This document shows, in pieces, positions 7,431-35,414 of a DNA stretch of 37,748 bases. The notes beneath the pieces were generated by a model, which did not search any database, had not been told where the DNA came from, and saw only the letters and a program-made list of their open reading frames with translations. A program made the translations under genes and the position numbers. Positions within the stretch are counted from its first letter, which is position 1, and each line of letters starts with the position of its first letter. Source of the DNA: a virus; the IMG/VR virus record IMGVR_UViG_3300024999_000229, positions 1 through 37,748 of that record; one strand, given 5' to 3'.

Positions 7431-10400
7431 TTACTTCTTAATCATTTTTGAGAACTCTTTAAAAACTCCATCTGCTATCTCTTTTACTTGTGATCTTGTT
7501 GTTCCTTTTGGAACCGTTATATTGAACACAGGATTCAAATTATTAGTTGTTGACGTACTAACATTATTCGCCATTTGTGGTGCTTGAAACTGCGGAACAG
7601 AAAATGATGGCACTGATACAGAATTAAGGAGATTAGATATATCTACTTTTGATAAAATATCTGCAAGGACACTATTAGAACTTAAATTTCCTATTCCAGT
7701 TGCATAAGCAGGTATACTAGATTTATTAAGAAGTTTCTTTGTTAAATCTGCAGGAAGAACTTCTGAATCTTTAGGTAAATTTACAATTTCAGGGCCATTG
7801 TTACCACTAAGGAATGAATGCCCATCTGGAGTTGTTATTAATTCTGGCCCTAATTCCGATATTTTTGCTAATCCACCAGGATGGGATTTTGTTCCAGATG
7901 CATAATTTGGAAATGCATCAAGTTCATTTGCAGCAGATTTTATTTGCTTTATTGTATTAATAATTGCTTGAAAACTTGTATCAATTTCTCCTGCTTTTTC
8001 AGTTAATGTATTGGTAAATTCATTAGCAAAAGTATTAAGGCTTGTTTTAATACCTTCAATATTCCCATCAAGAATTTCTTGAACCTTTGCTGACCAAATT
8101 TCATCATTTAACATTAATTCATTAAAAGCTGTTTCTGTAGCGGTTTTTTGATCATCTAATGATTTTTTCTTTGCATCATAGGCATCATCTTCTGATTTTT
8201 TCTTTGCATCTGATTCTTTTTTGATTGCATCAAGAGCATCTTGCAAATTTTGTTTACGAAGATCATTAGTATGAGAATTTTGCATATCATCAATTTCACT
8301 ATTTTTCTCATCTAATTGTTTTTGTAATTCTGCTGATCTGGCTCTTCCCTCATTTGATGTATCTAAAACAAGATAATTCTGTTCGTTTTGGAGCACTTGA
8401 ACTTCTGATTGAGATTTATTTAGATTCTTATCATAATTCTCTGCATCTGCAAGACGATCTATTGCAGAAATTTGAGCATTTATTGAATCTTCTCTGGCCT
8501 TTTCTTCGCTGTCAATATCATCTAAAACTTGCTGATGTCTTCTATCTTCGGATATCATTTCCACATTTATTACTGATATATCAATTTCTTTTTTTATTTT
8601 TGCTGCATCTTTTAAGGTTTGAACTATATTATTAGCGTAATCTTGCATTGATTTTTGATTCTGATTAAGTGTGAGTTTTAGATTTGCCATTTCATCATTT
8701 AAAGCTTTTTGAGATTCTGTAGTTAAATCTGTTGCTTTTAATAAATGACCAATAGTAACAATTTCATTAAAAATTGCATCTTCTTTTTCTTTTAATATAG
8801 TAATTTGCTTTGCTTGTTCTTTAGCATATTCTTCAGATGATTTATCATATAAATCCATTATTGATTTAGATAGATTTATTTTTTTATCTAAATCAGAAAG
8901 AGATTGTTCGAATTTCCCAATTTCAATTTGAGTTAAGGAATTTTTTAGTGCTACTAGAGAATCTGTAAGTGTATCAATGGATACACCTGTTTCATGATAT
9001 GCTTTTTCTAATTTTTGTAATTCATCATGAGTCATATTCATAGTTTTTCTAGTTTCTACACTTGAGTTTTTGAACTTTGTTTGATACGCGAGGGTGTCTT
9101 CACCTTTATTGTCAAACCATGATAATGTTTCTCTGACTGAATATCCACCTTCAGATGATACTTTTGCAAATTCATCTTCCATTTTTGAACGAGCTTGGGA
9201 TAGTTGGGAGATTTGTTTGGTTTCACCTTCTATTAGTTGACGGGAGAGGGTGAGTTCCTTATTGTAGTCTTTTGCAGATTTTGCTATTTGTAGTTGCTTT
9301 TCGAGTAGTTTGTTGGATTCTTCTGTGATTTTGGATTCGGTTAAGAATGAACGAATTAGGGACTCTTCTATTGATACAAATTCTGATAGAGGGGTTGTTG
9401 GGGATGATTTGTCTTTTTTATCCTTTGGTTCCGATACTCCATAATTAGGAGAAGAAATACCATTCTCAAATGTCTTTAAATTCATCAACCTATTTAATTG
9501 TGCTTGAGAATTACCTAAATCATATTTTGCTTGAGATGCCATTGAATCAGAAGTATTTGTTGAAAGATAATTTCCTTTTTCATCTTCTCTAACACTTAAT
9601 TTTGCTGCATTTAATTTATTGATTGCTTCTATTTCTTTATTAATCTCATTAATACGAATTTGTGTTGCGGAAATGGTTGCTTGAGTGTCGGCAATTTGAG
9701 CGTCAATTGATTTATTAGAACCTGTTACTTTTGCTGTTACTGCATCAATTTCTGCTTGACGAAGAGTTTTAATTACGTCTATATTAATTACAACTGCACC
9801 ATTTACAATTGAGATCGCATCTGCCATTTTTTCATTAGCAGATATTAATTCAAGTGCTTTTTCAATAGACATTTCTTGACCATTAGATTGATCATATAGT
9901 ATTTGGTTGTATTCTTTGATAGAATCAGTAGAATCTTTAGATGATTTTATAAGAGACGAAAGTGATACTGTAACTTTATCTATTTTTTCTTTTGCTTCTT
10001 GGGCAGAAGGCATATTAAGCATATTTTTAAGAATTATTCCTGTTACTTCTCCCTCACTGCCCAACTTTTCTAAATATGGAGATAGTTCAGAAATAGCACT
10101 TTCATAAGAAGATTTAATTACATCATTACTTACTCCACTCTTAACCAATTCTTCTAATTTAGTTTTTGCTTCGTTAAGTTTTGATGAAAAATCAGATTTT
10201 TCTAATCCGTCAAAAATATTAGTAAATTGTTCTCCTGTTATTTTTGCCTCATCTTTAAGAGAACTTAAATCATAGATTAACTTTGTAATTGCTTCTTTTC
10301 CTAAAGATTGTGCGGAATCACTACTTTTTAAAAAAGAATCTGCCAAACTTGATAAATCTTTTCTACTTTCAAGAACTTTTGAACTCAATGTTGGCAATTC

Positions 10401-13400
10401 GTCTTTTATACCCTTTAAATTGTTTTTGGCAATTACTAATGAATCATTACCGTATGCGTCAAATTGAACTTGCTTACCATTATTTATATCATCTATTATC
10501 TTTAAGTATTCTTCTTTGTGCTTAGTCAATAAATCTAATCGTTTTTGATCTTTTTGTAATTGAGAAAAATTATTTGAACCATCCGTAATAAATGTATTAG
10601 ACATTTGTTCTTGTTTAATTTTTAATAATTCTTCATTGTCTTTAATTGCCTGTTTAATTGATTCTGATGAACCAATTATTGCCTTCCCCTCAGAATCATA
10701 TCCTTCTATTAAATCTGGGAATTGAGCAATTAGACGGTCTTTTACTTCTGCTAACTTTGTTTCCTCATCTGCTGTACGAGATGTTATAGAAGATAGGGAT
10801 TCATATTGATTGGCTAAATTTTTAGCTTCTGCAGTTTGTTGTTTAAGTGAATTAATACTTCTGCTTAATTCGTCAAATGCTTCTTTTTGTTTTTTTGCAG
10901 ATTTCTCTGCTGACGCTCCCATAAAGTCAAATATCATTATAATAGCAGTTACCGCACCGATTACTAAACCTATCGGATTAGCAAGCATAGCTGCCCATAA
11001 ACCTTTAATTGCAAAAGTTAGTGATGTTGTAGTACTCATCATTCCAATTTGTGCAAAAGACATTCCTGCTAATCTAGCTTGTGTTTGAACCAAACTTGAA
11101 TTTAACAACATAGTTGATGCAGAAAAATTCTTTAAAAAAGTCAAAAATGCTGTTCCTTTATTTACGGAAAGTATAGTAAATATAATCCCTAAAATAGTTC
11201 TAAGATTTCCAAAATTATTAATTAATAGAGTTATTCCACCTATCATGCTTTTTACAAGACTTGTATCTATAGTATTATTCCAGAAGTTATTTATGGAATT
11301 GCGAAGTTGATTAATCTTGGTTTCCCAACTGCCCATTCTCACTTCATTTTCAGCCATAGCACTTCCACTGGCAGTAGAGTATTCTTGAAGCATACTTTTA
11401 TACATATCAAAATTCTCTACTAAGGCAACTAATTGATTACCTCTGTATTTTCCGCCAAGACTTTCGATAATTGGGGCAGTTTTCATTGAACTAAGACCTG
11501 ACCAAATTCGACTCAAATCTTCTAAAACTGACATTGGGTTTCTTAGTTCTTCAATGCCATTTCGCATTTCATGAACTTTAATTCCAACACTATCCAATGC
11601 TTTTGCAGACTTAGACAATGCTTCGTCGTCAATTATATCTCCGTCTTCTGTTTCTCCCTTTATTTGTCTTATGTTCATTAAAATTCCACGAAATGCCCGT
11701 CCTGCTTCATTTCCACTCTTTTGTGTAATTGCTGTCATTGTCCCAACTGCAGCAGAAAGTTCATTTATTCCTACGGAGGCGTTTGCAGATATAGATCCTG
11801 CAACCATAATTCCTTCACTTATTTTAGAAATGCTGGTCGCGAACTTGTTATCTATGATATTTGCGCCGTCCAAAACTTTCATTAATTCTTCTTCACTACC
11901 TTTGTATTTATAAGCAGCATCAGTAGCAAGTAAAAATCCATTAGCTTGTTCTGCGGTAAGCTCACCAACGTTTTGAGACAGCAGAGAAACTTTTGCTAAA
12001 TCTTCCGCTTTTCCTTCATATCCTGCGCGACTAAATTCACCAATTGATTTTAAATAGTCTTGTGCTGTGCGACCAAAAGCATTAGAGGCTTCAAATGCAC
12101 TATCTTTTAAATTATTCATAGCTTCGGCACTAAGATTAGTTACTTTAGCAATATTTACCATTAATCCATCTAATTCTTTTAATGTGGTCAGGCCGGCTTG
12201 TAAAGACCTAAGTGGGGCGTACAGCGCGGTAGCAACCAAACCCCACGCAATCATCTTCCCAAAATTTTTACTGAGCGTAGTCAAAAAACTATCAGCAGCA
12301 CCATTTATTCTTGTAATTTCATTTGTAGCACTTCTTACAGATGTTGTTAATTGTGCAAACTGTAAATTCAATTCTCTTGCAGATTTTCCTCCAACAGTTC
12401 CAAATCTGGCTACTCCATCAGTTAACCGTGTCATTTCTGCTTGGATTTCTGGTCTTGCAAAAACAGTATCTTTTCCAACTTGCAAACTGGATAATTTATT
12501 TGCCATATTGCCTTGATATAATGAAATATCACTGGCACTTAAAGTTCTAGTATTTGTAGTTGCTATTATACGTTGTAAATCTCTATATTTAGCAATTTCT
12601 AACTCTAGATTTGCTATACTTTGTACAAATCCTCTTCTTTGCTCATTAGATAAATTTGTACTGCTATTTCTTGTCTGGTCAATTTGTAGTTTAATCTTAT
12701 CATATTGTGCAACTAGTGCTGATAAATTTCCATCATCTTTAATTCCAGTTGCAGGAGAAGTAAATCCACTTTTAAGTTTAGCAATTTTGTTTTCATATAA
12801 TTGAAGCTTATCTAATGCTTTTTGTATATTAGATCCTGCATTATTATCAATTAAATTCTCTCCGCTAAAAACATATCCTCTTTGAATACTATTTCCTGAA
12901 GCAATTTTTGCCATATCAAATTTTAGTTTTTCAATTACGCCACTTGCTCTTGTTACATTTGCTATAAATCCAGTTATTTCTTGCTTTGAATTCTTTAAAA
13001 ATGTAACATCTACATCTCCAAGAGATTTAAATTCTTTTTTAACTCTCTCAATTATATTAGAAGCAGAAACAAAAAATTGTCTTCCTTCTGCTTCTAATTT
13101 TGTCCTATCAAAAATTTGTTCTGTTTTTATTGGTGTTCTTGACAATTTTGAATCGCTTGCTACATAACCTGAAGTTGTACTTGTTATTCCTTTTGCATTT
13201 AATTTAGATATTTCTGCTAAATTAAATTTTACTTTTTCTAGTTGATTATTAGCAGATTTAATACTTGCTTCAAATGATTTTATATTGCCACTAGAATCTG
13301 TTATTATAGAACCTAAATCAAACTTTTTACCATTAAATGCACCTTTAATATATTTTTCAACATCTTCAATTGTTTTTATTACACCTTGTTTATATTTAAT

Positions 13401-13637
13401 ACCTTGATCTTTCAAATATTGCTCATTAAATATTTTAATTTTAGAACTTCCACTTTGTGATGTTGCTTTTTTAATCTTTTCCATAGTGTCATTAATCATA
13501 GTTAAATCTTTAGCATCTACTTTTAATTTAACCGATATATCAGTAGTTACTTGTTTTTGTAAATCTTTTATTTGTTTATTAATGTTTGTAGTTGCGGCAT
13601 CTATTTTTGCTTTAATTAATATATTTAAATCATCCAA
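7431..13637 (-). CDS. Tail tape measure protein (TP901 type)
   Basis: The protein has 2068 residues and starts at a TTG preceded by AGAGAGGTGG; there is no better in-frame ATG. Residues about 460-800 match the TP901 tape-measure core, with LKELDGLMVNIAKV, the phrase SAEAMNNLKDSAFEASNAF, then AGRAFRGILMNIRQI. Two hydrophobic segments lie near 810-830 and 880-910. Long coiled coils fill most of the remainder. Near residue 1915 is the typical ASGTKSHPGGLAKISELGPE segment. It sets tail length during assembly and is later ejected with the DNA. At roughly 1.5 angstrom per residue the tail would be about 0.3 micrometre long (an inference). Two small tail genes lie upstream and Dit lies downstream, as expected. 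A stretch around 9155-9420 has unusual base composition (see findings). Confidence 0.93.
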   Translation of the reverse strand: MDDLNILIKAKIDAATTNINKQIKDLQKQVTTDISVKLKVDAKDLTMINDTMEKIKKATSQSGSSKIKIFNEQYLKDQGIKYKQGVIKTIEDVEKYIKGAFNGKKFDLGSIITDSSGNIKSFEASIKSANNQLEKVKFNLAEISKLNAKGITSTTSGYVASDSKLSRTPIKTEQIFDRTKLEAEGRQFFVSASNIIERVKKEFKSLGDVDVTFLKNSKQEITGFIANVTRASGVIEKLKFDMAKIASGNSIQRGYVFSGENLIDNNAGSNIQKALDKLQLYENKIAKLKSGFTSPATGIKDDGNLSALVAQYDKIKLQIDQTRNSSTNLSNEQRRGFVQSIANLELEIAKYRDLQRIIATTNTRTLSASDISLYQGNMANKLSSLQVGKDTVFARPEIQAEMTRLTDGVARFGTVGGKSARELNLQFAQLTTSVRSATNEITRINGAADSFLTTLSKNFGKMIAWGLVATALYAPLRSLQAGLTTLKELDGLMVNIAKVTNLSAEAMNNLKDSAFEASNAFGRTAQDYLKSIGEFSRAGYEGKAEDLAKVSLLSQNVGELTAEQANGFLLATDAAYKYKGSEEELMKVLDGANIIDNKFATSISKISEGIMVAGSISANASVGINELSAAVGTMTAITQKSGNEAGRAFRGILMNIRQIKGETEDGDIIDDEALSKSAKALDSVGIKVHEMRNGIEELRNPMSVLEDLSRIWSGLSSMKTAPIIESLGGKYRGNQLVALVENFDMYKSMLQEYSTASGSAMAENEVRMGSWETKINQLRNSINNFWNNTIDTSLVKSMIGGITLLINNFGNLRTILGIIFTILSVNKGTAFLTFLKNFSASTMLLNSSLVQTQARLAGMSFAQIGMMSTTTSLTFAIKGLWAAMLANPIGLVIGAVTAIIMIFDFMGASAEKSAKKQKEAFDELSRSINSLKQQTAEAKNLANQYESLSSITSRTADEETKLAEVKDRLIAQFPDLIEGYDSEGKAIIGSSESIKQAIKDNEELLKIKQEQMSNTFITDGSNNFSQLQKDQKRLDLLTKHKEEYLKIIDDINNGKQVQFDAYGNDSLVIAKNNLKGIKDELPTLSSKVLESRKDLSSLADSFLKSSDSAQSLGKEAITKLIYDLSSLKDEAKITGEQFTNIFDGLEKSDFSSKLNEAKTKLEELVKSGVSNDVIKSSYESAISELSPYLEKLGSEGEVTGIILKNMLNMPSAQEAKEKIDKVTVSLSSLIKSSKDSTDSIKEYNQILYDQSNGQEMSIEKALELISANEKMADAISIVNGAVVINIDVIKTLRQAEIDAVTAKVTGSNKSIDAQIADTQATISATQIRINEINKEIEAINKLNAAKLSVREDEKGNYLSTNTSDSMASQAKYDLGNSQAQLNRLMNLKTFENGISSPNYGVSEPKDKKDKSSPTTPLSEFVSIEESLIRSFLTESKITEESNKLLEKQLQIAKSAKDYNKELTLSRQLIEGETKQISQLSQARSKMEDEFAKVSSEGGYSVRETLSWFDNKGEDTLAYQTKFKNSSVETRKTMNMTHDELQKLEKAYHETGVSIDTLTDSLVALKNSLTQIEIGKFEQSLSDLDKKINLSKSIMDLYDKSSEEYAKEQAKQITILKEKEDAIFNEIVTIGHLLKATDLTTESQKALNDEMANLKLTLNQNQKSMQDYANNIVQTLKDAAKIKKEIDISVINVEMISEDRRHQQVLDDIDSEEKAREDSINAQISAIDRLADAENYDKNLNKSQSEVQVLQNEQNYLVLDTSNEGRARSAELQKQLDEKNSEIDDMQNSHTNDLRKQNLQDALDAIKKESDAKKKSEDDAYDAKKKSLDDQKTATETAFNELMLNDEIWSAKVQEILDGNIEGIKTSLNTFANEFTNTLTEKAGEIDTSFQAIINTIKQIKSAANELDAFPNYASGTKSHPGGLAKISELGPELITTPDGHSFLSGNNGPEIVNLPKDSEVLPADLTKKLLNKSSIPAYATGIGNLSSNSVLADILSKVDISNLLNSVSVPSFSVPQFQAPQMANNVSTSTTNNLNPVFNITVPKGTTRSQVKEIADGVFKEFSKMIKK

Positions 13638-13677
13638 ATTAATCCACCTCTCTTTTATGTTTTAGGGCATGAAAATA

Positions 13678-13698
13678 CCCTACCTTCAAAGAGTAGGG
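13678..13698 (-). terminator. Weak hairpin before the tape measure gene
   Basis: A 6-bp GC-containing stem (arms 13678-13683 and 13693-13698, 9-base loop) is followed on the minus strand by ATTTTC. It lies in the 80-base gap between the upstream small tail gene and the tape measure gene. The short stem and T-run suggest partial termination or an RNA processing/stability element. Confidence 0.4.
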
Positions 13699-13717
13699 AG
13701 TTGATTTTATTATATAA

Positions 13718-14200
13718 TTATTTTGTTGTAATTCCTTTTGTTCGTAAATATCCTTTTAACCTAATCATATGTTCTTTTGTTTGCTTCATCTCTTCTATTG
13801 TTAATTGCATATACTCAAAAGCAGGAGTGTTGTAATAAGGATTGTATTTTTGATTACCATACTCTAATAGAAATGGTAATTCTTCATTATATGGACTTCC
13901 ATCAAATGATTGATGAATACCCCACATTCCTTCTGGTCCATATCTAGGAATTATTTTATCAGCATCTATATATATCTTAACTGATATTTCATCTCCAATT
14001 ACAGAAACTTTCCCTATGGTTAATGCTCGTAAAACTTCAAAACTGCGCGAATACATAGATTGTTCATTAGCATAAACAGTAGATAAGAGATACTTTTGAA
14101 TAGTATCTCTTACACTTCTTGCCACATCATCTTGCATAGCTTTTGCTACCTGTAATTTTGCATAATTAAGTAGTGAATTCACATCTTTAAAATCAGGCAT
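13718..14200 (-). CDS. Small neck/tail protein, HK97 gp10-like
   Basis: This 160-residue protein has an N-terminal helix, then a segment (about 25-60, around VRDTIQKYLLSTVY) followed by YSRSFEVLRAL and a beta-rich middle. That arrangement resembles HK97 gp10-type neck or tail-completion proteins with a conserved Y-x-R. The C-terminus is helical and basic. It overlaps the upstream gene by 8 bases, pointing to translational coupling. Gp10-type genes normally sit between the connector genes and the tail tube; here it is immediately before the tape measure, so the assignment is tentative. No catalytic motif is seen. Confidence 0.5.
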   Translation of the reverse strand: MPDFKDVNSLLNYAKLQVAKAMQDDVARSVRDTIQKYLLSTVYANEQSMYSRSFEVLRALTIGKVSVIGDEISVKIYIDADKIIPRYGPEGMWGIHQSFDGSPYNEELPFLLEYGNQKYNPYYNTPAFEYMQLTIEEMKQTKEHMIRLKGYLRTKGITTK

Positions 14201-14741
14201 TTTTATCTCCTATGTTAATACCCATTGCTTTTCCAAGATTTTTAAGAGAATCAGGAGATATCTTATTAAATTGTTTAGGCAATTCTTTTATTAATTTCAT
14301 TAATCCGTTTTGATCTGGAATTTTTATAATTAGTTTATTTAATGCTTGATTAACAATATTAACCATACTGTTATCAACCAACTGAATCTGTTCAATTTCT
14401 TTTTCCAAAATATTATAAATAAACTTCTTTTCAGATTCAGGAATTAATTCTATAATTTCATCTAGCACACCATATTCTTTTAATTCATCATATAACGCCA
14501 CAACATCATCTACTTCAAAATTTATATTTGTAAATTCATTTGCTAAAACATATTCAAAAGCGAACTCTTTCAAAGCAAAATCAATTCTTTTGACTTCCTC
14601 ATCAATTATACACAAATCTAAAATCTTTTTAATTAATATTTTTTTTGTAGATAGTGGTAAATAATTTTTAATTTTAAAGCCTACACATTCATTAATCTTA
14701 TATCCTTGCTCTCTAATAATTTCTAACGTTAATAATTCCAT
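14193..14741 (-). CDS. Probable tail assembly chaperone
   Basis: A 182-residue, mostly helical, acidic protein. The pattern KNYLPLSTKKILIKKIL, then a region with two conserved hydrophobic helices and YDELKEYGVLDEII, resembles small Firmicutes phage proteins that sit between tail tube and tape measure and act as tail assembly chaperones. Position (two genes before the tape measure) supports this. I do not see an obvious slippery frameshift site producing a longer form. The start is a clear ATG with GGAGG. Function is inferred from position and weak similarity only. Confidence 0.5.
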   Translation of the reverse strand: MELLTLEIIREQGYKINECVGFKIKNYLPLSTKKILIKKILDLCIIDEEVKRIDFALKEFAFEYVLANEFTNINFEVDDVVALYDELKEYGVLDEIIELIPESEKKFIYNILEKEIEQIQLVDNSMVNIVNQALNKLIIKIPDQNGLMKLIKELPKQFNKISPDSLKNLGKAMGINIGDKNA

Positions 14742-14779
14742 TTAATTAATTCCTCCATTTATTTATATTTATTCACATT

Positions 14780-14819
14780 AATACAACTCCATACGCTATT
14801 GAGTGTAGGGAGTTGTATT
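14780..14819 (-). terminator. Long hairpin after the membrane-protein pair
   Basis: Perfect 11-bp stem (arms 14780-14790 and 14809-14819), extended by three more pairs after one mismatch. It begins immediately after the stop at 14821. The longer T-run (TTTTT) is on the plus-strand side; on the minus strand only TATTAATG follows, so termination of the minus transcript may be moderate. It separates the 15.4-14.8 kb cassette from the tail genes. Confidence 0.6.
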
Positions 14820-14820
14820 T

Positions 14821-15237
14821 TTATCTAAGATTCTTAACAGCTAAAATTCCATCTTCTGAATTCATTTTCCCTATGTCATCTAAACGATTTGTTGATATAC
14901 TAAAATAATTTCCAATACTTTTATAATAAATTTCTAATTTGTTTACATAAGAAGTATCTACTTTCTTATTAAGATTGATTTCGCTAGATATTAACATTAT
15001 AGTAATATACAAGTTTTCATCATCATTCAAGTCATTTCTCCAATTTTTTGCTATATTAAGCATCTTAGATTTATCTGAAATATTATTCACTTTCAAATCA
15101 GATGCTTTTTGATAATCACCAATGTTATAATAATACTGAGCCAAACTAACTTTTTGATTATGCTTATAAGCAAAAAATCCAACAGATATTGCTATAATTA
15201 TCACTATGAATATCCCGATAATCTTATTTGTTTTCAT
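14821..15237 (-). CDS. Membrane-anchored protein of unknown function
   Basis: A 138-residue protein with one N-terminal membrane segment (residues about 7-24, IIGIFIVIIIAISVGFFA). A hydrophilic, mostly helical region of about 110 residues follows, including YYNIGDYQKAS, which resembles a tetratricopeptide-like helix pair. The N-terminal KTNK before the membrane segment suggests the bulk lies outside the cytoplasm (inference). It overlaps the upstream gene by 4 bases (ATGA), so the two are translationally coupled. It has none of the usual features of an endolysin or spanin. A lysogenic conversion or superinfection-exclusion role is possible but unproven. Confidence 0.75.
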   Translation of the reverse strand: MKTNKIIGIFIVIIIAISVGFFAYKHNQKVSLAQYYYNIGDYQKASDLKVNNISDKSKMLNIAKNWRNDLNDDENLYITIMLISSEINLNKKVDTSYVNKLEIYYKSIGNYFSISTNRLDDIGKMNSEDGILAVKNLR

Positions 15238-15440
15238 TGCTTCTCACCAACTTTTTCAGCTAAAACAATTAATAATCCACCTGAGAATATAGCTGAACCG
15301 AACGACATAATACCTACATAGTGGTAGAAACTTTCTGCTACACTTTTCCCTGATACAGATTCTATGTTAAGTAATAGGAATCCTGCTACTAGAAATAAAA
15401 TGGTAGATAATAGTGCTAAGATTTGTATAAACAATTTCAT
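15234..15440 (-). CDS. Small membrane protein, two transmembrane segments
   Basis: This 68-residue protein has two predicted membrane helices (residues about 5-24 and 41-61) separated by a short polar loop. The ribosome site AAGGAGG is excellent. It is the first gene of a two-gene unit with its own sigma-A-like promoter (15480-15508) and a hairpin after the second gene. Two helices and small size could fit a holin, but no endolysin is nearby and the partner is a single-pass anchored protein, so I do not call it a holin. Confidence 0.75.
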   Translation of the reverse strand: MKLFIQILALLSTILFLVAGFLLLNIESVSGKSVAESFYHYVGIMSFGSAIFSGGLLIVLAEKVGEKQ

Positions 15441-15479
15441 TATTGTATACCTCCTTTTAATATTTTTATTATTAAATTT

Positions 15480-15508
15480 ATTATATGCTATTTAGAGGAA
15501 GTATACAA
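15480..15508 (-). promoter_or_regulatory. Sigma-A-type promoter for the membrane-protein pair
   Basis: On the minus strand: TTGTAT (15503-15508), 17-base spacer, TATAAT (15480-15485). It lies in the gap between the stop of the large nuclease gene (15543) and the start at 15440, with about 35 bases of leader. Confidence 0.7.
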
Positions 15509-15542
15509 CAAATTATTGAAATTATGTTAAGAATTATGATTA

Positions 15543-17159
15543 TTAAATAGACGCTTGATGGTCTATATTATTACTTATTATTTTCTTTTTAAAATGTTTT
15601 GCAAAATTGCTATATTTCCCATATCTTTTGATTATTTCATGATATATTCCAGATTCTTTTCTAGATATAATCATCGTACTAGGTAAAACATCTTGATTAT
15701 TACTATATGGCATTAACACTTCTAAAAGTTCTTCATCAGTCATACTAAAACATTCTCTGGTGCTTATATTATATGTATTTTCTACATGTTTTAACTCAAT
15801 TCCCAAGAATGGTTTAAATATCTCTTTAAGAGTTTTAGTTTTTACATCATCCGGGTAAATAAAAAGACATTTATCTAAGTGTCCGTTTAATCTTAATATT
15901 TCAATTTTATCTTCTAATCTTTCTTTATACTTTCTCCCTATACCACCCCTTGGTTTATCTGAATACATTCCTGCATATTCTACATATCGCCATTGATTAT
16001 TAATAAACACTTTCCAATCAAAAACTTTTTTACTATCTTCTATTAATTCTTTATATTTTGGTTGTCTAATAAATATTAATTCATTGTCGATAAAGAAATT
16101 GGCAATATTACATTCTTCTAACGATTTGCATTTTTCTCCATTCTTATCAAAACATATCTTACCTGCTCCTCCACCTTTATAAAATTTTTTGTAATCTATA
16201 TCGAGTAGTTTACATATGTTTTCAATTGAACCAAAATGACTAATATATGTTGGTGCTGAAGCTATATCTGAATTATTATTCATATCATTGTGATAAGGAA
16301 TTCTTTTTAATTTCAGAAATAGATTATTAAAATCGGTTAACATTTCTTCCTCTGTTCTTACCATACTTGTTGATCCAGATGGAATCCAGTTTAAGCCTTC
16401 AATTACCTGATTATATGTAATGCCATCAAATACTCTTGTAAATAGATTCCAACTATACTTACAACCGTATTCTTCTAATTCAATAAACATAGGTGGTCTA
16501 TTTAAAATATTATATATTCTTGTAAGTTCATTTGTTAAATCTTCCTTAGTAACTTCCCCATGAATACTATTTAAATCGTATTGTGGTATATATTTCCTAC
16601 ATATATCATTATATTTTATTTTTACCTTTGTTTCTAAAACTCTCCTTCCAAAACCTCTATGTGTCAATGTATCATATTCTACTACTGTAGGACATTTATT
16701 TAATTTATCTGCTAACTTTATTAACTCTTTTATAGATATTTCAATTCTCTCTTCATCTGTTAATGGAATTTCTGCAATACCTGCTAAATAACATGCATTT
16801 TCATAACTCTCAAAATTTTTACAATAATATGTATGTGATGGTTCTAATTTATTAATCCTAAATTCTTCTCTAGTTGGTATTTTACCTAATAGATCATAAT
16901 GTTCTTTTAACTTTACCAAAGACCATTCTTTGTTTATTTTATAAGATGGATCTGATTTTATTAAATCACAAATATCAAAAATATCTCCTAATTTAGTACA
17001 TCCAAATGTATTTCTTGTGTAAGTAAGAGATGGTAATCCATTTTTATTTACAAACTCATTAGTGTTTGGTGTCCTTCCATTAATCTCATAAAAACCTTGT
17101 ATAGCTTTAATTACTTCTTCTTTAGTCCACTGTTTAAATTGATTTCTACTATTTCCCAT
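15543..17159 (-). CDS. Large putative homing endonuclease with associated repeats (A)
   Basis: This 538-residue protein starts at the ATG at 17159, preceded by AAGGAG at 8 bases; a GTG slightly upstream is less likely. It begins with five copies, each about 50-60 residues, of the homing-endonuclease-associated repeat. The pattern is a helix, then GRTPNTNEF / GKIPTREEF, then YxxxFxxxxxxxxxxxG, covering residues about 5-310. A sixth copy lies at the C-terminus (KRYGKYSNFAKHF). Between them, about 345-435, is a probable PD-(D/E)XK-type nuclease: a helix with SLEE, FDWKVFINNQWRYVEYAG, a basic helix, then CLFIYPDD. The catalytic lysine is not obvious. The repeats probably bind DNA. It sits between two autonomous cassettes, as free-standing homing genes often do. 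A paralogue lies at 24676-26307. Confidence 0.75.
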   Translation of the reverse strand: MGNSRNQFKQWTKEEVIKAIQGFYEINGRTPNTNEFVNKNGLPSLTYTRNTFGCTKLGDIFDICDLIKSDPSYKINKEWSLVKLKEHYDLLGKIPTREEFRINKLEPSHTYYCKNFESYENACYLAGIAEIPLTDEERIEISIKELIKLADKLNKCPTVVEYDTLTHRGFGRRVLETKVKIKYNDICRKYIPQYDLNSIHGEVTKEDLTNELTRIYNILNRPPMFIELEEYGCKYSWNLFTRVFDGITYNQVIEGLNWIPSGSTSMVRTEEEMLTDFNNLFLKLKRIPYHNDMNNNSDIASAPTYISHFGSIENICKLLDIDYKKFYKGGGAGKICFDKNGEKCKSLEECNIANFFIDNELIFIRQPKYKELIEDSKKVFDWKVFINNQWRYVEYAGMYSDKPRGGIGRKYKERLEDKIEILRLNGHLDKCLFIYPDDVKTKTLKEIFKPFLGIELKHVENTYNISTRECFSMTDEELLEVLMPYSNNQDVLPSTMIISRKESGIYHEIIKRYGKYSNFAKHFKKKIISNNIDHQASI

Positions 17160-17243
17160 ACTCAACACTCCTTAAAATTTTATATTCCTACTAAAAACCA
17201 ACCACACACTCCAAACCAAAACCATATAAAAAGGCAACAAAAA

Positions 17244-20270: not shown

Positions 20271-21329
20271 TTATTTATCTGCTATCATATCATCAAATTT
20301 TTCCTTATCATCTAAATGATTTTTTAGTTTATCTAAACCTTTCCATTTTCTTTCCTTTGCTGTAAGATCGTTGTAAACCTTATACATCTCAGCAGAACTC
20401 CATCCCATAATTTCAATAATGAAATCGCTATCTAAACCCAAACGGGTCAAATGGGTCACAGTATAGTGCCTCAGACAATGAAAATAAACTGGTGTCTCTA
20501 AAAAAGTTTCCCATTTTTCAATCCAACCTCTAATTGTATGTAATGTTGCAGGTTTTCCGTCTCTTGTAATAAAGATAAAATCATGTTCTTGATTATATTT
20601 CTTCATTATCTTTTCTCTTTCAATTAACCAATCATTATAATATGGAAGAAATATATCTTTTACTAAATATTTTATAAGTTGTTTTCCCTGTTTTGAAAAA
20701 CCTTTAGTTTTTATTGTTTTCAATGTTTCTAAAAATAATCCATCAAAAGCTGTATTATCCTCACTAATAATAGATGTTTTGAATCTAAGTAATTCGCTAA
20801 CTCTTGCTCCGCTACTAATACCTAATGCTAGTAAACATGCTTCGTTTGGTCTATTAAGTGTATTTTTAAGATGATTAAGCAAACTATCAACTTGTTCTTC
20901 TGACAATATTGTTTTTTCTCTGACAGGAGCTTTTGCCATTAAATCTACCGCTTTTAGCACAATGTTACGATAATTTATATATGTTTCATCATAGAATCTC
21001 TCAATAAACTCTGATAATGAACTTAAAGCAGAACGTATTCTACTAAATCTATTTGAACTCCAATGTAATTCTTCTACTCCATAACCAAAGAAATCTGCAA
21101 ATTCAATTTTCTTCATATCAGTAAATAATTTATTATCATTTTCCAACAAATTCCATGTGAAGAAAATATTTAAATCCGATGTATAGCCAGTTACAGTACC
21201 ATCGCTCTTGGATGTATTTTTGTATTTAAGAAATTTATCTACTAATTTTACATTTTTAGGATTGAATTGTGCGGTGAGTTCTGGAGATGTTATTTGTTTT
21301 TTAAATGTTTCTCTAGGAATTGTAATCAC
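20271..21329 (-). CDS. Tyrosine recombinase / phage integrase
   Basis: This 352-residue protein has an N-terminal SAM-like core-binding domain (about 30-125) and a catalytic domain. Visible catalytic residues are the Arg in GISSGARVSELLRF, His and Arg in FHCLRHYTVTHL, Trp in IMGWSS (in place of the second His), and the nucleophile Tyr in MYKVYND. It would carry out site-specific integration or excision. The start is a GTG at 21329, but AAGGA is only one base away and no ATG is nearby; initiation at one of two AUU codons just downstream is possible. Integrases rarely sit among tail genes, so it may belong to a transferred cassette. See the open extension after its stop. Confidence 0.92.
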   Translation of the reverse strand: MITIPRETFKKQITSPELTAQFNPKNVKLVDKFLKYKNTSKSDGTVTGYTSDLNIFFTWNLLENDNKLFTDMKKIEFADFFGYGVEELHWSSNRFSRIRSALSSLSEFIERFYDETYINYRNIVLKAVDLMAKAPVREKTILSEEQVDSLLNHLKNTLNRPNEACLLALGISSGARVSELLRFKTSIISEDNTAFDGLFLETLKTIKTKGFSKQGKQLIKYLVKDIFLPYYNDWLIEREKIMKKYNQEHDFIFITRDGKPATLHTIRGWIEKWETFLETPVYFHCLRHYTVTHLTRLGLDSDFIIEIMGWSSAEMYKVYNDLTAKERKWKGLDKLKNHLDDKEKFDDMIADK

Positions 21330-27226: not shown

Positions 27227-27964
27227 TTATTTTAGTGCTTTATTTAATCCACCTAATTTATCTGAACTAACAAATAAATCATCATAAGGATTGTGAAAAA
27301 TATCTAAATCTTCGGCATAATCATCAAGTTTTAAATCAGCACCAACACACTTGAATTGAACATTTGTATCATACTCCACCATTTTCCTCAATCTATAAAA
27401 ATCAGAATAAATCTGATAGATTGTATAATTCTCTAAATCTGAATAATTTTTACCAGTACCAACTGAAACAGTAGTAATTATATCTTCCATTAAAATTTTA
27501 GAAGCATTTTTTTGTTTTGCTTTTAAAGCTTTTTGTGCCCAATCATTCATAAGTTTTGTTTTGTATATCTTTTGTTCATGTATTAGATTTTGTTTTAATA
27601 TTATATTTCTAATTTCTTCATAATTATAAATTGTAATAATATTAGAACTATCTACTATAAATCCTTCTATTTGTTCATTTGATATAAACTTAACATCTTG
27701 TCTAGTTATAATAGAAAAAATATCCTCTAATTTTTTTACTAACTCTTCTTGTGTTAATTGCAAATGTGGCAAACTGCTAAAAATTAATAGTAACAAAGGA
27801 TAATCTACATTTTCAAAATGATTCTTAGATATGTATAAAAGATGCGATGCTTCTATAAATTTATCGTAATCTTTTAATCTAACTGGATGAATGTATATTG
27901 GATTATCTTTATCAATTCCTTCTATGTAATCAGGTTGAGCAAAAATATATTTAAGTTCTGCCAT
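27227..27964 (-). CDS. Probable tail assembly protein
   Basis: This 245-residue helical protein opens with KYIFAQPDYIEGIDKDNPIY and HPVRLKDYDKFIEAS and ends with DDYAEDLDIFHNPYDDLF. Its central region is basic (KLMNDWAQKALKAKQKNASK). The sequence pattern recalls chaperone-like proteins encoded next to tail tube genes, but I cannot name a family confidently. The start is immediately next to the preceding stop (27965), so it is coupled to the tail completion gene. No membrane or catalytic motif is seen. Confidence 0.55.
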   Translation of the reverse strand: MAELKYIFAQPDYIEGIDKDNPIYIHPVRLKDYDKFIEASHLLYISKNHFENVDYPLLLLIFSSLPHLQLTQEELVKKLEDIFSIITRQDVKFISNEQIEGFIVDSSNIITIYNYEEIRNIILKQNLIHEQKIYKTKLMNDWAQKALKAKQKNASKILMEDIITTVSVGTGKNYSDLENYTIYQIYSDFYRLRKMVEYDTNVQFKCVGADLKLDDYAEDLDIFHNPYDDLFVSSDKLGGLNKALK

Positions 27965-33914: not shown

Positions 33915-35414
33915 TTACTCAGCTAATGCCGCATCGTATATCATCCCAATTTGTGGAATATTCTCAATTGCCACGTAATTTCCGAACTCCCAATCATATC
34001 TTGTAACTTCGGCTTTTTATAAATTTGTATTCATATAGAATCGCAACTTCTATACCGTTTATAACTGCTCATACTTTCATATGAGAATAGACTATTTCTT
34101 CACCTTCACCATTATGTGTTAAGGGTTTCCATTTTCCACTCGCTTGAGTGTACTGGCATTTCAGCCATAGTCGTTGAAGTTTACTCTATTCGAGTCTTAC
34201 CTGCAATGAACATCCATTATAATAGCACTTAGGATTTAACCATATGCCATCTCTCAACTTTTTTCTACTTTCGTTCCATCACACTTAGGCATGTTTCATC
34301 CTTATGTTGTGGCATGAGAGCTTTAGGAATTACCTGCAATTAAGGAAATGTCCTATGCACATTTCTGTACATACGGGGCTAAAGTTACCCTTAAATTAAT
34401 GTCAGTTTGTGTCATCGTTGTCATATTACCACGAAGTCCAATTTGCAATGCGTTGGCGGCTCCTTGTGGTAAGAACCACAAATCAGTCGTAGGCAATTGA
34501 GGAGCATAGAAGTCACCAGCAGTATTAAGGTCAATCATATTATAAGAATTTGGCAATTCTACAACAATACTTCCTTTGTATACTTTAATAAGACCAGTTT
34601 TCATTATTTCTTCCATTACATATTCTGGGAATCTAAATTCTGTTCCTGCAGATACCGTGCTGAAAGTAGTCAAGTCTCCTAATTTATTAACTGCACTATA
34701 GTCTCCCATAATTGTAACAGAAGAACCAAAACGTCTTGCTAATTTTCTTGTATTTTCGACATTAGTCTTAGTAATCCCTTCACTATAATTCTTTAAGCTA
34801 GTAGCTGCCGTAATAGCACTTTTTAATGCGTTGATATGTGAGAGAACCATTTGGTTAACCATATCGGTCATTACTTGCTCATTGGCTGTATTAAAGGCAT
34901 TTACACTACCACTTTGTAATTCTCTGTAATCAACCACAACACCACCAGTAGAAGTTTTGGTTTCCATGATTCCAGTTCTCTTTTTTACAGTAGGGAATAC
35001 AAAAGCACCAGAAGATGCTTGAACTCTAGACTTATCTCCTTGTAATTGATAAACTTCATAACGCATTTCCTCATTTAGACCAACTTTTGTAACCGTGCCC
35101 ATAGCACTATTAATAGCCAATCTCTTTTCTAAAGGTTGTTGAATAGTAATAGTACGAATAGCATTCAACTCGGCTTTTGCCTGAGTATTACCATCATTAG
35201 CCATACCTGCTAAAGTTTTAATCTTATCCATTACTGTATCAACTTTTTTACCATATTTAGATACATCTTTTCCATAAACAATATTAGTAAAAATCTCCAC
35301 ATCTTCATTCGGACGAGCAGGATTAATAGTTGCCAACTTATTCTTTACAATTTTATTAATTTCCACTTGTTCTGCATTCTCTTGTAATTTTGTAAAATCT
35401 ATTCCAAAACTCAT
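33915..35414 (-). CDS. Major capsid protein, split by a group I intron
   Basis: Exon 1 runs from ATG 35414 (GAGG site) and reads as a 353-residue capsid protein until a stop inside the intron (34353). It has an N-terminal helical arm (about 1-115), a core with SRVQASSGAFVFPTVKKRTG and VMTDMVNQMVLSHINALKSA, and the C-terminal LWFLPQGAANALQIGLRGN, as in HK97-fold capsid proteins. Its end (TLAPYVQK) is incomplete. About 340 bases further on the protein resumes with EVTRYDWEFGNYVAIENIPQ and IGMIYDAALAE, ending in TAA at 33915. Splicing would give about 380-385 residues. The first part of exon 2 fixes its frame, but the exact 5' site is not resolved (see intron). A terminator follows. Confidence 0.85.
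34013..34354 (-). ncRNA. Group I self-splicing intron in the major capsid gene
   Basis: On the minus strand the conserved core appears in order. AATTGCAGGTAATTCCTAAAG (34344 region) is P3/P4-P5. TTCAACGACTATGG with the complementary AAATAGTCT further on is P7, the guanosine-binding helix. Two hairpins lie between them (GGC-TGAAAT-GCC and CACTC-AAGC-GAGTG), then P9 (CTCATA...TATGAG) and a further hairpin TATAGAA/TTCTATA. The intron ends ATAAAAAG, so the terminal G is probably 34013. GAAATGT and ACATTTC, flanking the 5' end, pair perfectly as P1. The 5' site could follow T34355, T34359 or T34361; the first and last keep the reading frame, while 34359 looks best by pairing. No reading frame lies inside. 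The nuclease gene C next door is the likely mobility partner. Confidence 0.88.

What the first reader, a model, noticed from the sequence alone, without database searches (positions are those of the whole stretch)
14780..15508. Two-gene membrane moron with its own promoter
A TTGTAT-17-TATAAT promoter, a two-helix membrane protein, an overlapping gene for a membrane-anchored helical protein and a long hairpin sit between a homing gene and tail genes. This is the layout of a lysogenic conversion or superinfection-exclusion unit, and neither protein is recognisable.
Basis: partly seen in the sequence, partly recalled or inferred. Interest (0 to 1): 0.5.

Follow-up and report, generated by a model that had tools for sequence, protein, structure and literature searches.

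The report
Phage two-gene membrane unit, own promoter
In a relative of the Bacillus phage SPβ, two small membrane-protein genes with their own conserved promoter sit among the tail genes, close to where SPβ keeps its immunity gene, so they may help a bacterium that carries the phage keep rival phages out, but this is untested.

Summary
On the minus strand lie a TTGTAT-17-TATAAT site, a 68-aa two-helix membrane protein (A), a 138-aa membrane-anchored helical protein (B) overlapping A by ATGA, and a hairpin right after B. The promoter pattern alone is at chance level (4 in the window, 2.4 expected). It is credible because in a second, distinct virus 58 of 60 nt around it are unchanged and A is under purifying selection (dN/dS 0.10), while the next tail gene is 60% identical in protein. 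The hairpin is not conserved, and its T-rich flank is on the strand opposite to the genes. The phage is SPβ-like. The pair lies between an integrase-like gene and the tape-measure gene, an interval that carries cargo in SPβ relatives: YomJ (the 'd' immunity protein), toxin genes, transposase genes. In a third relative the same slot holds a weakly YomJ-like membrane protein in opposite orientation. A and B themselves do not resemble YomJ and reach no curated family cut-off. Best reading: an accessory unit read by host polymerase in the lysogen, most likely for superinfection exclusion at the membrane. Accessory status is fairly well supported; the function is inference. Another membrane function or lysis is not excluded.

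The parts
15471..15530 (-). Conserved regulatory block holding the promoter; -35 TTGTAT 15508-15503, -10 TATAAT 15485-15480
   Evidence: 58 of 60 nt identical in IMGVR_UViG_3300024999_000207; an exact-match IMG/VR scan with the 43-nt core found 2 contigs, both of which carry the pair
15234..15440 (-). Gene A: 68-aa protein, two membrane helices
   Evidence: 88% aa identity to the relative, dN/dS 0.10, hydropathy, AF2 helical hairpin; nothing near a Pfam or NCBIfam cut-off, nothing in PHROGs or PADLOC
14821..15237 (-). Gene B: 138-aa protein, N-terminal membrane anchor then a helical domain
   Evidence: 47% aa identity to the relative; residues 1-50 74%, the rest 30%; below Pfam and NCBIfam cut-offs, best PHROG E 0.004, PADLOC none
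14780..14819 (.). Hairpin (two 18-nt arms) right after B; T-rich flank on the plus strand; absent in the relative
   Evidence: not listed by the terminator scan
14193..14741 (-). Next gene, a tail-assembly gene by position (the place of SPβ yomO); no sequence match to YomO
   Evidence: 60% identity to the relative's copy; no YomO hit
13718..14200 (-). YomN-like tail gene, by way of the relative's copy
   Evidence: the relative's copy matches YomN at 1e-14 and this gene matches the relative's copy at 2e-7; this gene itself matches YomN only at 0.13
7431..13637 (-). Tape-measure protein (YomI-like)
   Evidence: PhageMin_Tail 9e-17; YomI 2e-51
15543..17168 (-). Homing-endonuclease-type gene upstream; the relative has a different ORF here
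   Evidence: Pfam HNH_repeat 2e-31; only short weak similarity to the relative's ORF, best E 0.008
20271..21329 (-). Tyrosine-recombinase-like gene (YomM-like) on the far side of the cargo interval
   Evidence: phrog_1 integrase 1.6e-33; YomM 26.5%, 2e-9

Best explanation
A and B form a small accessory operon in a cargo interval of the tail region of an SPβ-like, probably temperate phage. Host RNA polymerase reads it from its own conserved promoter, independently of the late tail transcript, so it can be made in the lysogen or early in infection. Both proteins go to the cytoplasmic membrane: A as a two-helix hairpin, B held by one N-terminal helix with its helical body outside the cytoplasm (topology inferred). 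The most likely function is superinfection exclusion: A and B act together at the membrane to stop DNA entry of a related incoming phage, with A and the anchor of B as the constant part and the fast-changing body of B as the part that recognises the target. Shown: genes, overlap, promoter conservation, purifying selection, genomic neighbourhood. Inferred: promoter activity, expression in the lysogen, partnership of A and B, orientation, exclusion function, target.
For: Promoter block 58 of 60 nt unchanged where synonymous divergence of whole neighbouring genes is 0.8-1.3 per site and the next gene is 60% identical; the block 15092-15530 is 85.5% identical in DNA against 70% for the next gene. 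A dN/dS 0.10; B residues 1-50 0.17 against 0.47 for the rest. Gene order and overlap kept in the relative. The interval between the recombinase and the tape measure holds cargo in SPβ (yomJ/K/L), SPR (yomJ and two others), BUCT083 (RelE-type toxin, a YomJ match), Geobacillus E3 (two PemK-annotated genes, a YomJ match) and phi3T (two transposase genes and a YomJ C-terminal piece). In a third relative (L013) the slot directly upstream of the same tail gene holds, in opposite orientation, a 164-aa membrane protein with a weak YomJ match (hhalign 92.9%; profile hit E 0.006). YomJ expressed from a plasmid gives resistance to closely related phages (PMC8270828, passages). [quoted passage not shown] Exclusion proteins of three long-tailed phages are membrane proteins, and for two of them altered tape-measure (or tube plus tape-measure) genes escape the block (PMC10883804, passages).
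Against: No homology of A or B to YomJ (hhalign 0.3-0.5%; no YomJ-profile hit in the window, G001 or G002), and no match to an exclusion family. Only two independent copies of the pair are known. The 85.5% block is not unique: a tape-measure stretch (7741-8948) is 83.5% identical between the same two viruses. In the relative, 15 nt and no hairpin separate B from the next tail gene, so the promoter could also feed tail genes. The pair is upstream of two tail genes, whereas SPβ yomJ is directly upstream of the tape measure: the interval is comparable, the exact slot is not. The L013 link to YomJ is not seen by direct BLAST, and that protein's N-terminus also weakly matches ZorB (2e-4). YonO was not detectable in any of the five IMG/VR records, all possibly fragments. 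Host unknown; no expression data. B weakly matches PHROG Rz-like spanin (0.004).
Confidence: 0.42

Rival explanations
1. Another lysogenic-conversion function: the pair changes the host envelope or stress response without blocking phages.
For: Same promoter and position evidence; cargo in this interval is functionally mixed: toxin genes, transposase genes, antirepressors, an acetyltransferase, an Ig/LRR protein in the relative. The relative's B has a weak NCBIfam match to a surface-associated protein family (5e-4, far below its cut-off).
Against: The one gene of the interval for which I saw a reported function, yomJ, is an immunity gene; nothing firm in A or B points to another pathway.
Confidence: 0.28
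2. Lysis proteins: A a two-helix holin, B an antiholin or spanin-like partner.
For: Size and topology of A fit a class II holin (recalled); B residues 3-72 weakly match PHROG Rz-like spanin, E 0.004.
Against: The spanin match is weak and no lysis family appears in the Pfam or NCBIfam scans; Rz spanins belong to Gram-negative hosts (recalled), while the named SPβ-like phages looked at here (SPβ, SPR, phi3T, BUCT083, Sundance, LC76P1, E3) are phages of Bacillota genera (phylum recalled). PMC8270828 (passage) names SPβ's holin-like genes yomA and yomB beside the amidase blyA (yomC); by gene names these lie beyond the tail genes (inferred). I saw no endolysin near the pair in the ORF lists of the window and L004 (by eye). 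A conserved separate promoter is not expected of a late lysis gene.
Confidence: 0.14
3. Membrane-bound tail-assembly or virion accessory proteins, made with the late genes.
For: In the relative the pair is followed after 15 nt by a tail gene.
Against: Not found in 9 of 11 records searched, seven of them complete genomes of SPβ-like phages, which assemble tails without it; own promoter; A is better conserved than the two adjoining tail genes and the tape-measure N-terminus.
Confidence: 0.08
4. Addiction or toxin-antitoxin pair, A being a small membrane toxin and B its antidote.
For: Two short overlapping genes, own promoter; toxin genes occur in this interval in relatives.
Against: No toxin or antitoxin family match; a membrane-anchored antidote would be unusual.
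Confidence: 0.08

Closest known systems
SPβ YomJ (d immunity protein) and its neighbours YomK and YomL
   Same: Cargo between the YomM recombinase and the YomI tape measure in the same phage kind; membrane segments; a possible YomJ relative sits at the pair's slot in L013
   Different: No sequence relation; two genes instead of one; YomJ has 227 aa with a glycine-rich segment at about 131-150; two tail genes separate the pair from the tape measure
Membrane superinfection-exclusion proteins: Ltp (TP-J34), Sie2009 (Tuc2009), HK97 gp15, P22 SieA
   Same: Small membrane-associated proteins of temperate phages; [quoted passage not shown]
   Different: Described as single proteins; Ltp is a lipoprotein encoded in the lysogeny module beside integrase; no library match links A or B to them; not compared sequence to sequence; A and B lie among tail genes
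T4 Imm (recalled)
   Same: Small two-helix membrane protein that blocks DNA entry
   Different: Virulent phage; not compared sequence to sequence
Rz-like spanin (phrog_739)
   Same: N-terminal anchor plus helical body
   Different: Weak match (E 0.004), no outer-membrane partner gene recognised, position not in a lysis cassette

Membership tests
SPβ YomJ / d immunity family | Sequence similarity to the YomJ profile | tested here: not met
   hhalign of B and A with a four-sequence YomJ alignment: 0.5% and 0.3%; YomJ profile has no hit in the window, G001 or G002
SPβ YomJ / d immunity family | Location between the YomM-like recombinase and the tape measure | tested here: met
   Window 20271 recombinase, pair, 7431 tape measure; but two tail genes lie between the pair and the tape measure, unlike SPβ
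SPβ YomJ / d immunity family | Membrane segments | tested here: met
   Hydropathy of A, B and YomJ
SPβ YomJ / d immunity family | Resistance to related phages when expressed from a plasmid | not testable with these tools
   Needs an experiment
Superinfection exclusion proteins (functional class) | Expressed from the prophage and blocks an incoming phage | not testable with these tools
   Only the promoter sequence can be read here
Known exclusion or defence families in Pfam, PHROGs, NCBIfam, PADLOC | Match at the curated cut-off (Pfam, NCBIfam) or at a convincing E-value (PHROGs, PADLOC have no cut-off) | tested here: not met
   best PHROG 0.004, PADLOC none for A, B and the relative's B, best NCBIfam 5e-4 to the relative's B at 20 bits of 80 required
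Rz-like spanin / lysis cassette | Clear profile match and neighbouring endolysin | tested here: not met
   PHROG E 0.004 only; no endolysin beside the pair in the ORF lists of the window or L004, by eye; the window ends inside the tail genes, so a distant cassette cannot be seen
Moron (autonomous accessory unit) | Own promoter | tested here: met
   Conserved promoter block; activity not tested
Moron (autonomous accessory unit) | Own terminator | tested here: not met
   Hairpin lacks a T-run on the coding strand, is not listed by the scan and is absent in the relative
Moron (autonomous accessory unit) | Patchy presence among related phages | tested here: met
   A and B in 2 of 11 records searched, the window not among them; one of the two is the same virus as the window; four of the 11 are IMG/VR records that may be fragments

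The most novel reading that the evidence does not exclude
A two-component membrane exclusion device of a new family: a constant two-helix partner (A) and a constant anchor carry a fast-diverging outer domain (B) that recognises the injection machinery, perhaps the tape measure encoded three genes downstream, so that the exclusion unit and the tail module it is matched to travel together.
Probability: 0.12. Interest if true: 0.6.

Novelty: new variant of a known kind. Interest (0 to 1): 0.35.

Why it matters
If right, it adds an unrecognised protein pair to the immunity and exclusion cargo of SPβ-type phages and marks the interval between recombinase and tape measure as a place to look for such genes, a simple test bed for how a prophage keeps relatives out. 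If the pair has another membrane function it is still ordinary cargo of a temperate phage.

Tried and rejected
Sequence families: A and B reach no curated cut-off in Pfam or NCBIfam; PHROGs gave only weak matches for B (best 0.004) and none for A; PADLOC none. Sub-threshold matches I did not credit: B to Pfam DUF5124 (0.008) and spanin phrog_739 (0.004); the relative's B to NVEALA (0.004), MlaE (0.006) and NCBIfam SAG1386/EF1546 (5e-4); the relative's A to DUF7649 (0.02). PDB sequences: none at 0.001 (weak ones for B's profile from 0.08). GenBank phages: only at E 1 or worse. Plasmids: none at E 1. Genomes: one scan with A and one with the neighbouring tail gene confirmed no relative in the collection of 84,980 species (exact short peptides, so close relatives only). 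IMG/VR: five scans with A or B returned only two contigs between them.

Operator idea: the promoter and the Shine-Dalgarno region form an inverted repeat (best 13-mer 12 of 13 in the window, 11 of 13 in the relative), but 9 of 300 and 17 of 300 shuffles reach those values, and the motif is not repeated elsewhere in the window above chance (7 matches with up to 2 mismatches, 4.83 expected). Left as weak.

RNA element at the hairpin: the two Rfam matches in 14700-15560 were a microRNA model far below its cut-off. Structure search of A: 0 matches at E 0.001, little to expect of a helical hairpin. B was not searched because its model is poor. YonO: no match in the five IMG/VR records, nor in Sundance or E3, so the late-polymerase argument is by analogy. 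Sample origin: the three metagenome numbers are in no held paper. Direct BLAST of the L013 protein with YomJ found nothing; the relation rests, mostly a glycine-rich stretch, so it is tentative.

Full report
What is there. The window is a whole IMG/VR virus record of 37,748 bases. On its minus strand, between a homing-endonuclease-type gene (15543-17168, Pfam HNH_repeat 2e-31) and tail genes, are a TTGTAT-17-TATAAT promoter-like site, gene A (15440-15234, 68 aa), gene B (15237-14821, 138 aa, overlapping A by ATGA) and a hairpin with two 18-nt arms at 14780-14819. A has two hydrophobic segments and is predicted as a helical hairpin. B has one N-terminal segment; its model is a long helix followed by low-confidence helices.

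Is the promoter more than chance? By pattern alone no: TTG-N20-TATAAT occurs 4 times in the window against 2.44 expected. The evidence comes from relatives. IMGVR_UViG_3300025009_000318 is 99.9% identical over 16.2 kb and counts as the same virus. IMGVR_UViG_3300024999_000207 (L004) is distinct: it has the pair in the same order and overlap, A 88% identical, B 47%. The 60 nt at 15471-15530, which hold the promoter, differ at 2 positions, although synonymous divergence of the whole genes around is 0.8 to 1.3 per site. A shows dN/dS 0.10; B has a constant N-terminal part (residues 1-50, 74% identity, dN/dS 0.17) and a diverged body (30%, 0.47); the next tail gene is 60% identical (dN/dS 0.22), the YomN-like gene 31%, the tape-measure N-terminus 62%. 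Not every structural stretch has diverged as far: a later part of the tape-measure gene is 83.5% identical in DNA. Still, the promoter block and A stand out from their direct neighbours. An exact-match IMG/VR scan with the promoter core found only these two contigs (the window's own record may be left out of such scans).

The hairpin. On the coding strand it is followed by AATGTG, on the other strand by TTTATC; the terminator scan lists it on neither strand; in L004 only 15 nt without a hairpin separate B from the next gene. I do not count it as the unit's terminator. A different stem-loop ahead of the tape-measure gene is present in both viruses (intergenic identity 79%; folds), and SPβ has an annotated stem-loop just ahead of yomI.

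What phage is it? The tape measure is YomI-like (2e-51), gene 27227-27964 is YomV-like (1e-15), the recombinase 20271-21329 is YomM-like (26.5%, 2e-9), the Dit protein is 40% identical over 155 residues to one of Brevibacillus phage Sundance, and the virion protein 26437-27210 matches Sundance_30 (3e-9), itself similar to YomU. The protein 34353-35414, by eye the major capsid protein, is 40.7% identical to a protein of four SPβ-group phages (SPR, SPbetaL2, SPbetaL3, BUCT082); SPβ itself was not among the five records hit. In SPβ the interval between yomM and yomI holds yomL, yomK and yomJ, the last annotated 'immunity protein d'. In related phages it holds YomJ plus other cargo: SPR, BUCT083 with a RelE-type toxin, Geobacillus E3 with two PemK-annotated genes, phi3T with two transposase genes and a YomJ C-terminal piece. 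Sundance has one small gene there, and so has LC76P1 if its unannotated gene 00154 is the recombinase. In the window the interval holds an antirepressor, an acetyltransferase, two small unknown genes, a homing gene and the pair; in L004 an Ig/LRR protein, an antirepressor, a PIN-domain protein, a homing-type ORF (by eye), other unknown ORFs and the pair; the recombinase of that virus (L010 14226-15413) I recognised by eye only. One difference matters: in SPβ the order is yomO, yomN, yomM, cargo, yomI; here it is recombinase, cargo and pair, a yomO-position gene, a YomN-like gene, tape measure. The interval is comparable, the slot is not identical.

A third relative, IMGVR_UViG_3300025000_000104 (L013), found through the neighbouring tail gene, has no detectable A or B. 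Directly upstream of that tail gene, in the opposite orientation, it has a 164-aa protein with an N-terminal membrane segment and a glycine-rich stretch like that of YomJ (hhalign 92.9%; profile E 0.006 on that record; direct BLAST none; a weak ZorB match of its N-terminus, 2e-4). If that relation is right, the pair occupies a slot used by an immunity-type gene in a sister phage. A fourth, more distant record (L014) has neither A nor B nor a YomJ hit.

How it probably works. A review states that YomJ expressed from a plasmid gives resistance to closely related phages and that it seems not essential for maintaining lysogeny (PMC8270828, passages; the original 1986 paper is not held). SPβ late structural and lysis genes need the phage polymerase YonO (PMC5467207, passages); a host-type promoter inside such a region would allow expression apart from them. 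I could not find YonO in these fragments, so this is analogy. [quoted passage not shown] Ltp is expressed in the prophage state (PMC3952083, passages). From this I take superinfection exclusion at the membrane as the most likely function (0.42), with other conversion functions (0.28) and lysis (0.14) as main rivals. The accessory, self-promoted nature is better supported (my estimate about 0.75) than any function.

Membership. A and B are not recognisable YomJ relatives, nor members of any family in the libraries searched. The claim is 'works like', not 'is a'. Literature: searches on SPβ with superinfection, immunity or lysogeny terms, on exclusion proteins and tape measures and on yomJ. Their listings, capped at 10 to 20 rows of up to 129 papers, showed no title on this pair; I do not claim more.

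Limits. Two independent copies, unknown host, no expression data, and public scans by exact short peptides that find close relatives only.

Noticed in passing
window 34068-34408 (-): Group I intron (Rfam RF00028, 51.6 bits, cut-off 50) overlapping the 3' end of the putative capsid ORF (34353-35414); by eye the reading frame resumes after it. The default Rfam scan of window, L012 and L013 together listed nothing.
   Followed up: partly
L012 13304-13480: A stretch 76% identical over 179 nt to the window's capsid intron region interrupts the tape-measure gene of the relative (by eye): seemingly the same intron kind in two structural genes of sister phages.
   Followed up: partly
window 18337-17437 (-): A second self-promoted cargo unit: TTGACT-17-TATAAT at 18337-18309 with an extended -10, a short basic protein, then a GNAT acetyltransferase 2 nt downstream (phrog_1758, 1.6e-27). 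The short protein's C-terminus resembles an ORF at L013 4146-4292 (by eye). Possibly a toxin-antitoxin-like pair.
   Followed up: no
L004 1612-3342: Phage-borne 576-aa protein with Big_2 domains, leucine-rich repeats and a signal-like N-terminus (by eye) among the cargo; L013 328-1107 has a Big_2/Big_4 protein in the same area. Candidate surface or conversion genes.
   Followed up: no
window 13638-13717 (-) and L004 9645-9720: Stem-loop in the conserved intergenic region ahead of the tape-measure gene (79% identity; folds); SPβ also has an annotated stem-loop there. Possible attenuator.
   Followed up: no
window 15436-15508 (-): Inverted repeat between the promoter and the Shine-Dalgarno region of A (12 of 13 in the window, 11 of 13 in the relative), only weakly above shuffles (9 and 17 of 300); possible operator.
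   Followed up: partly
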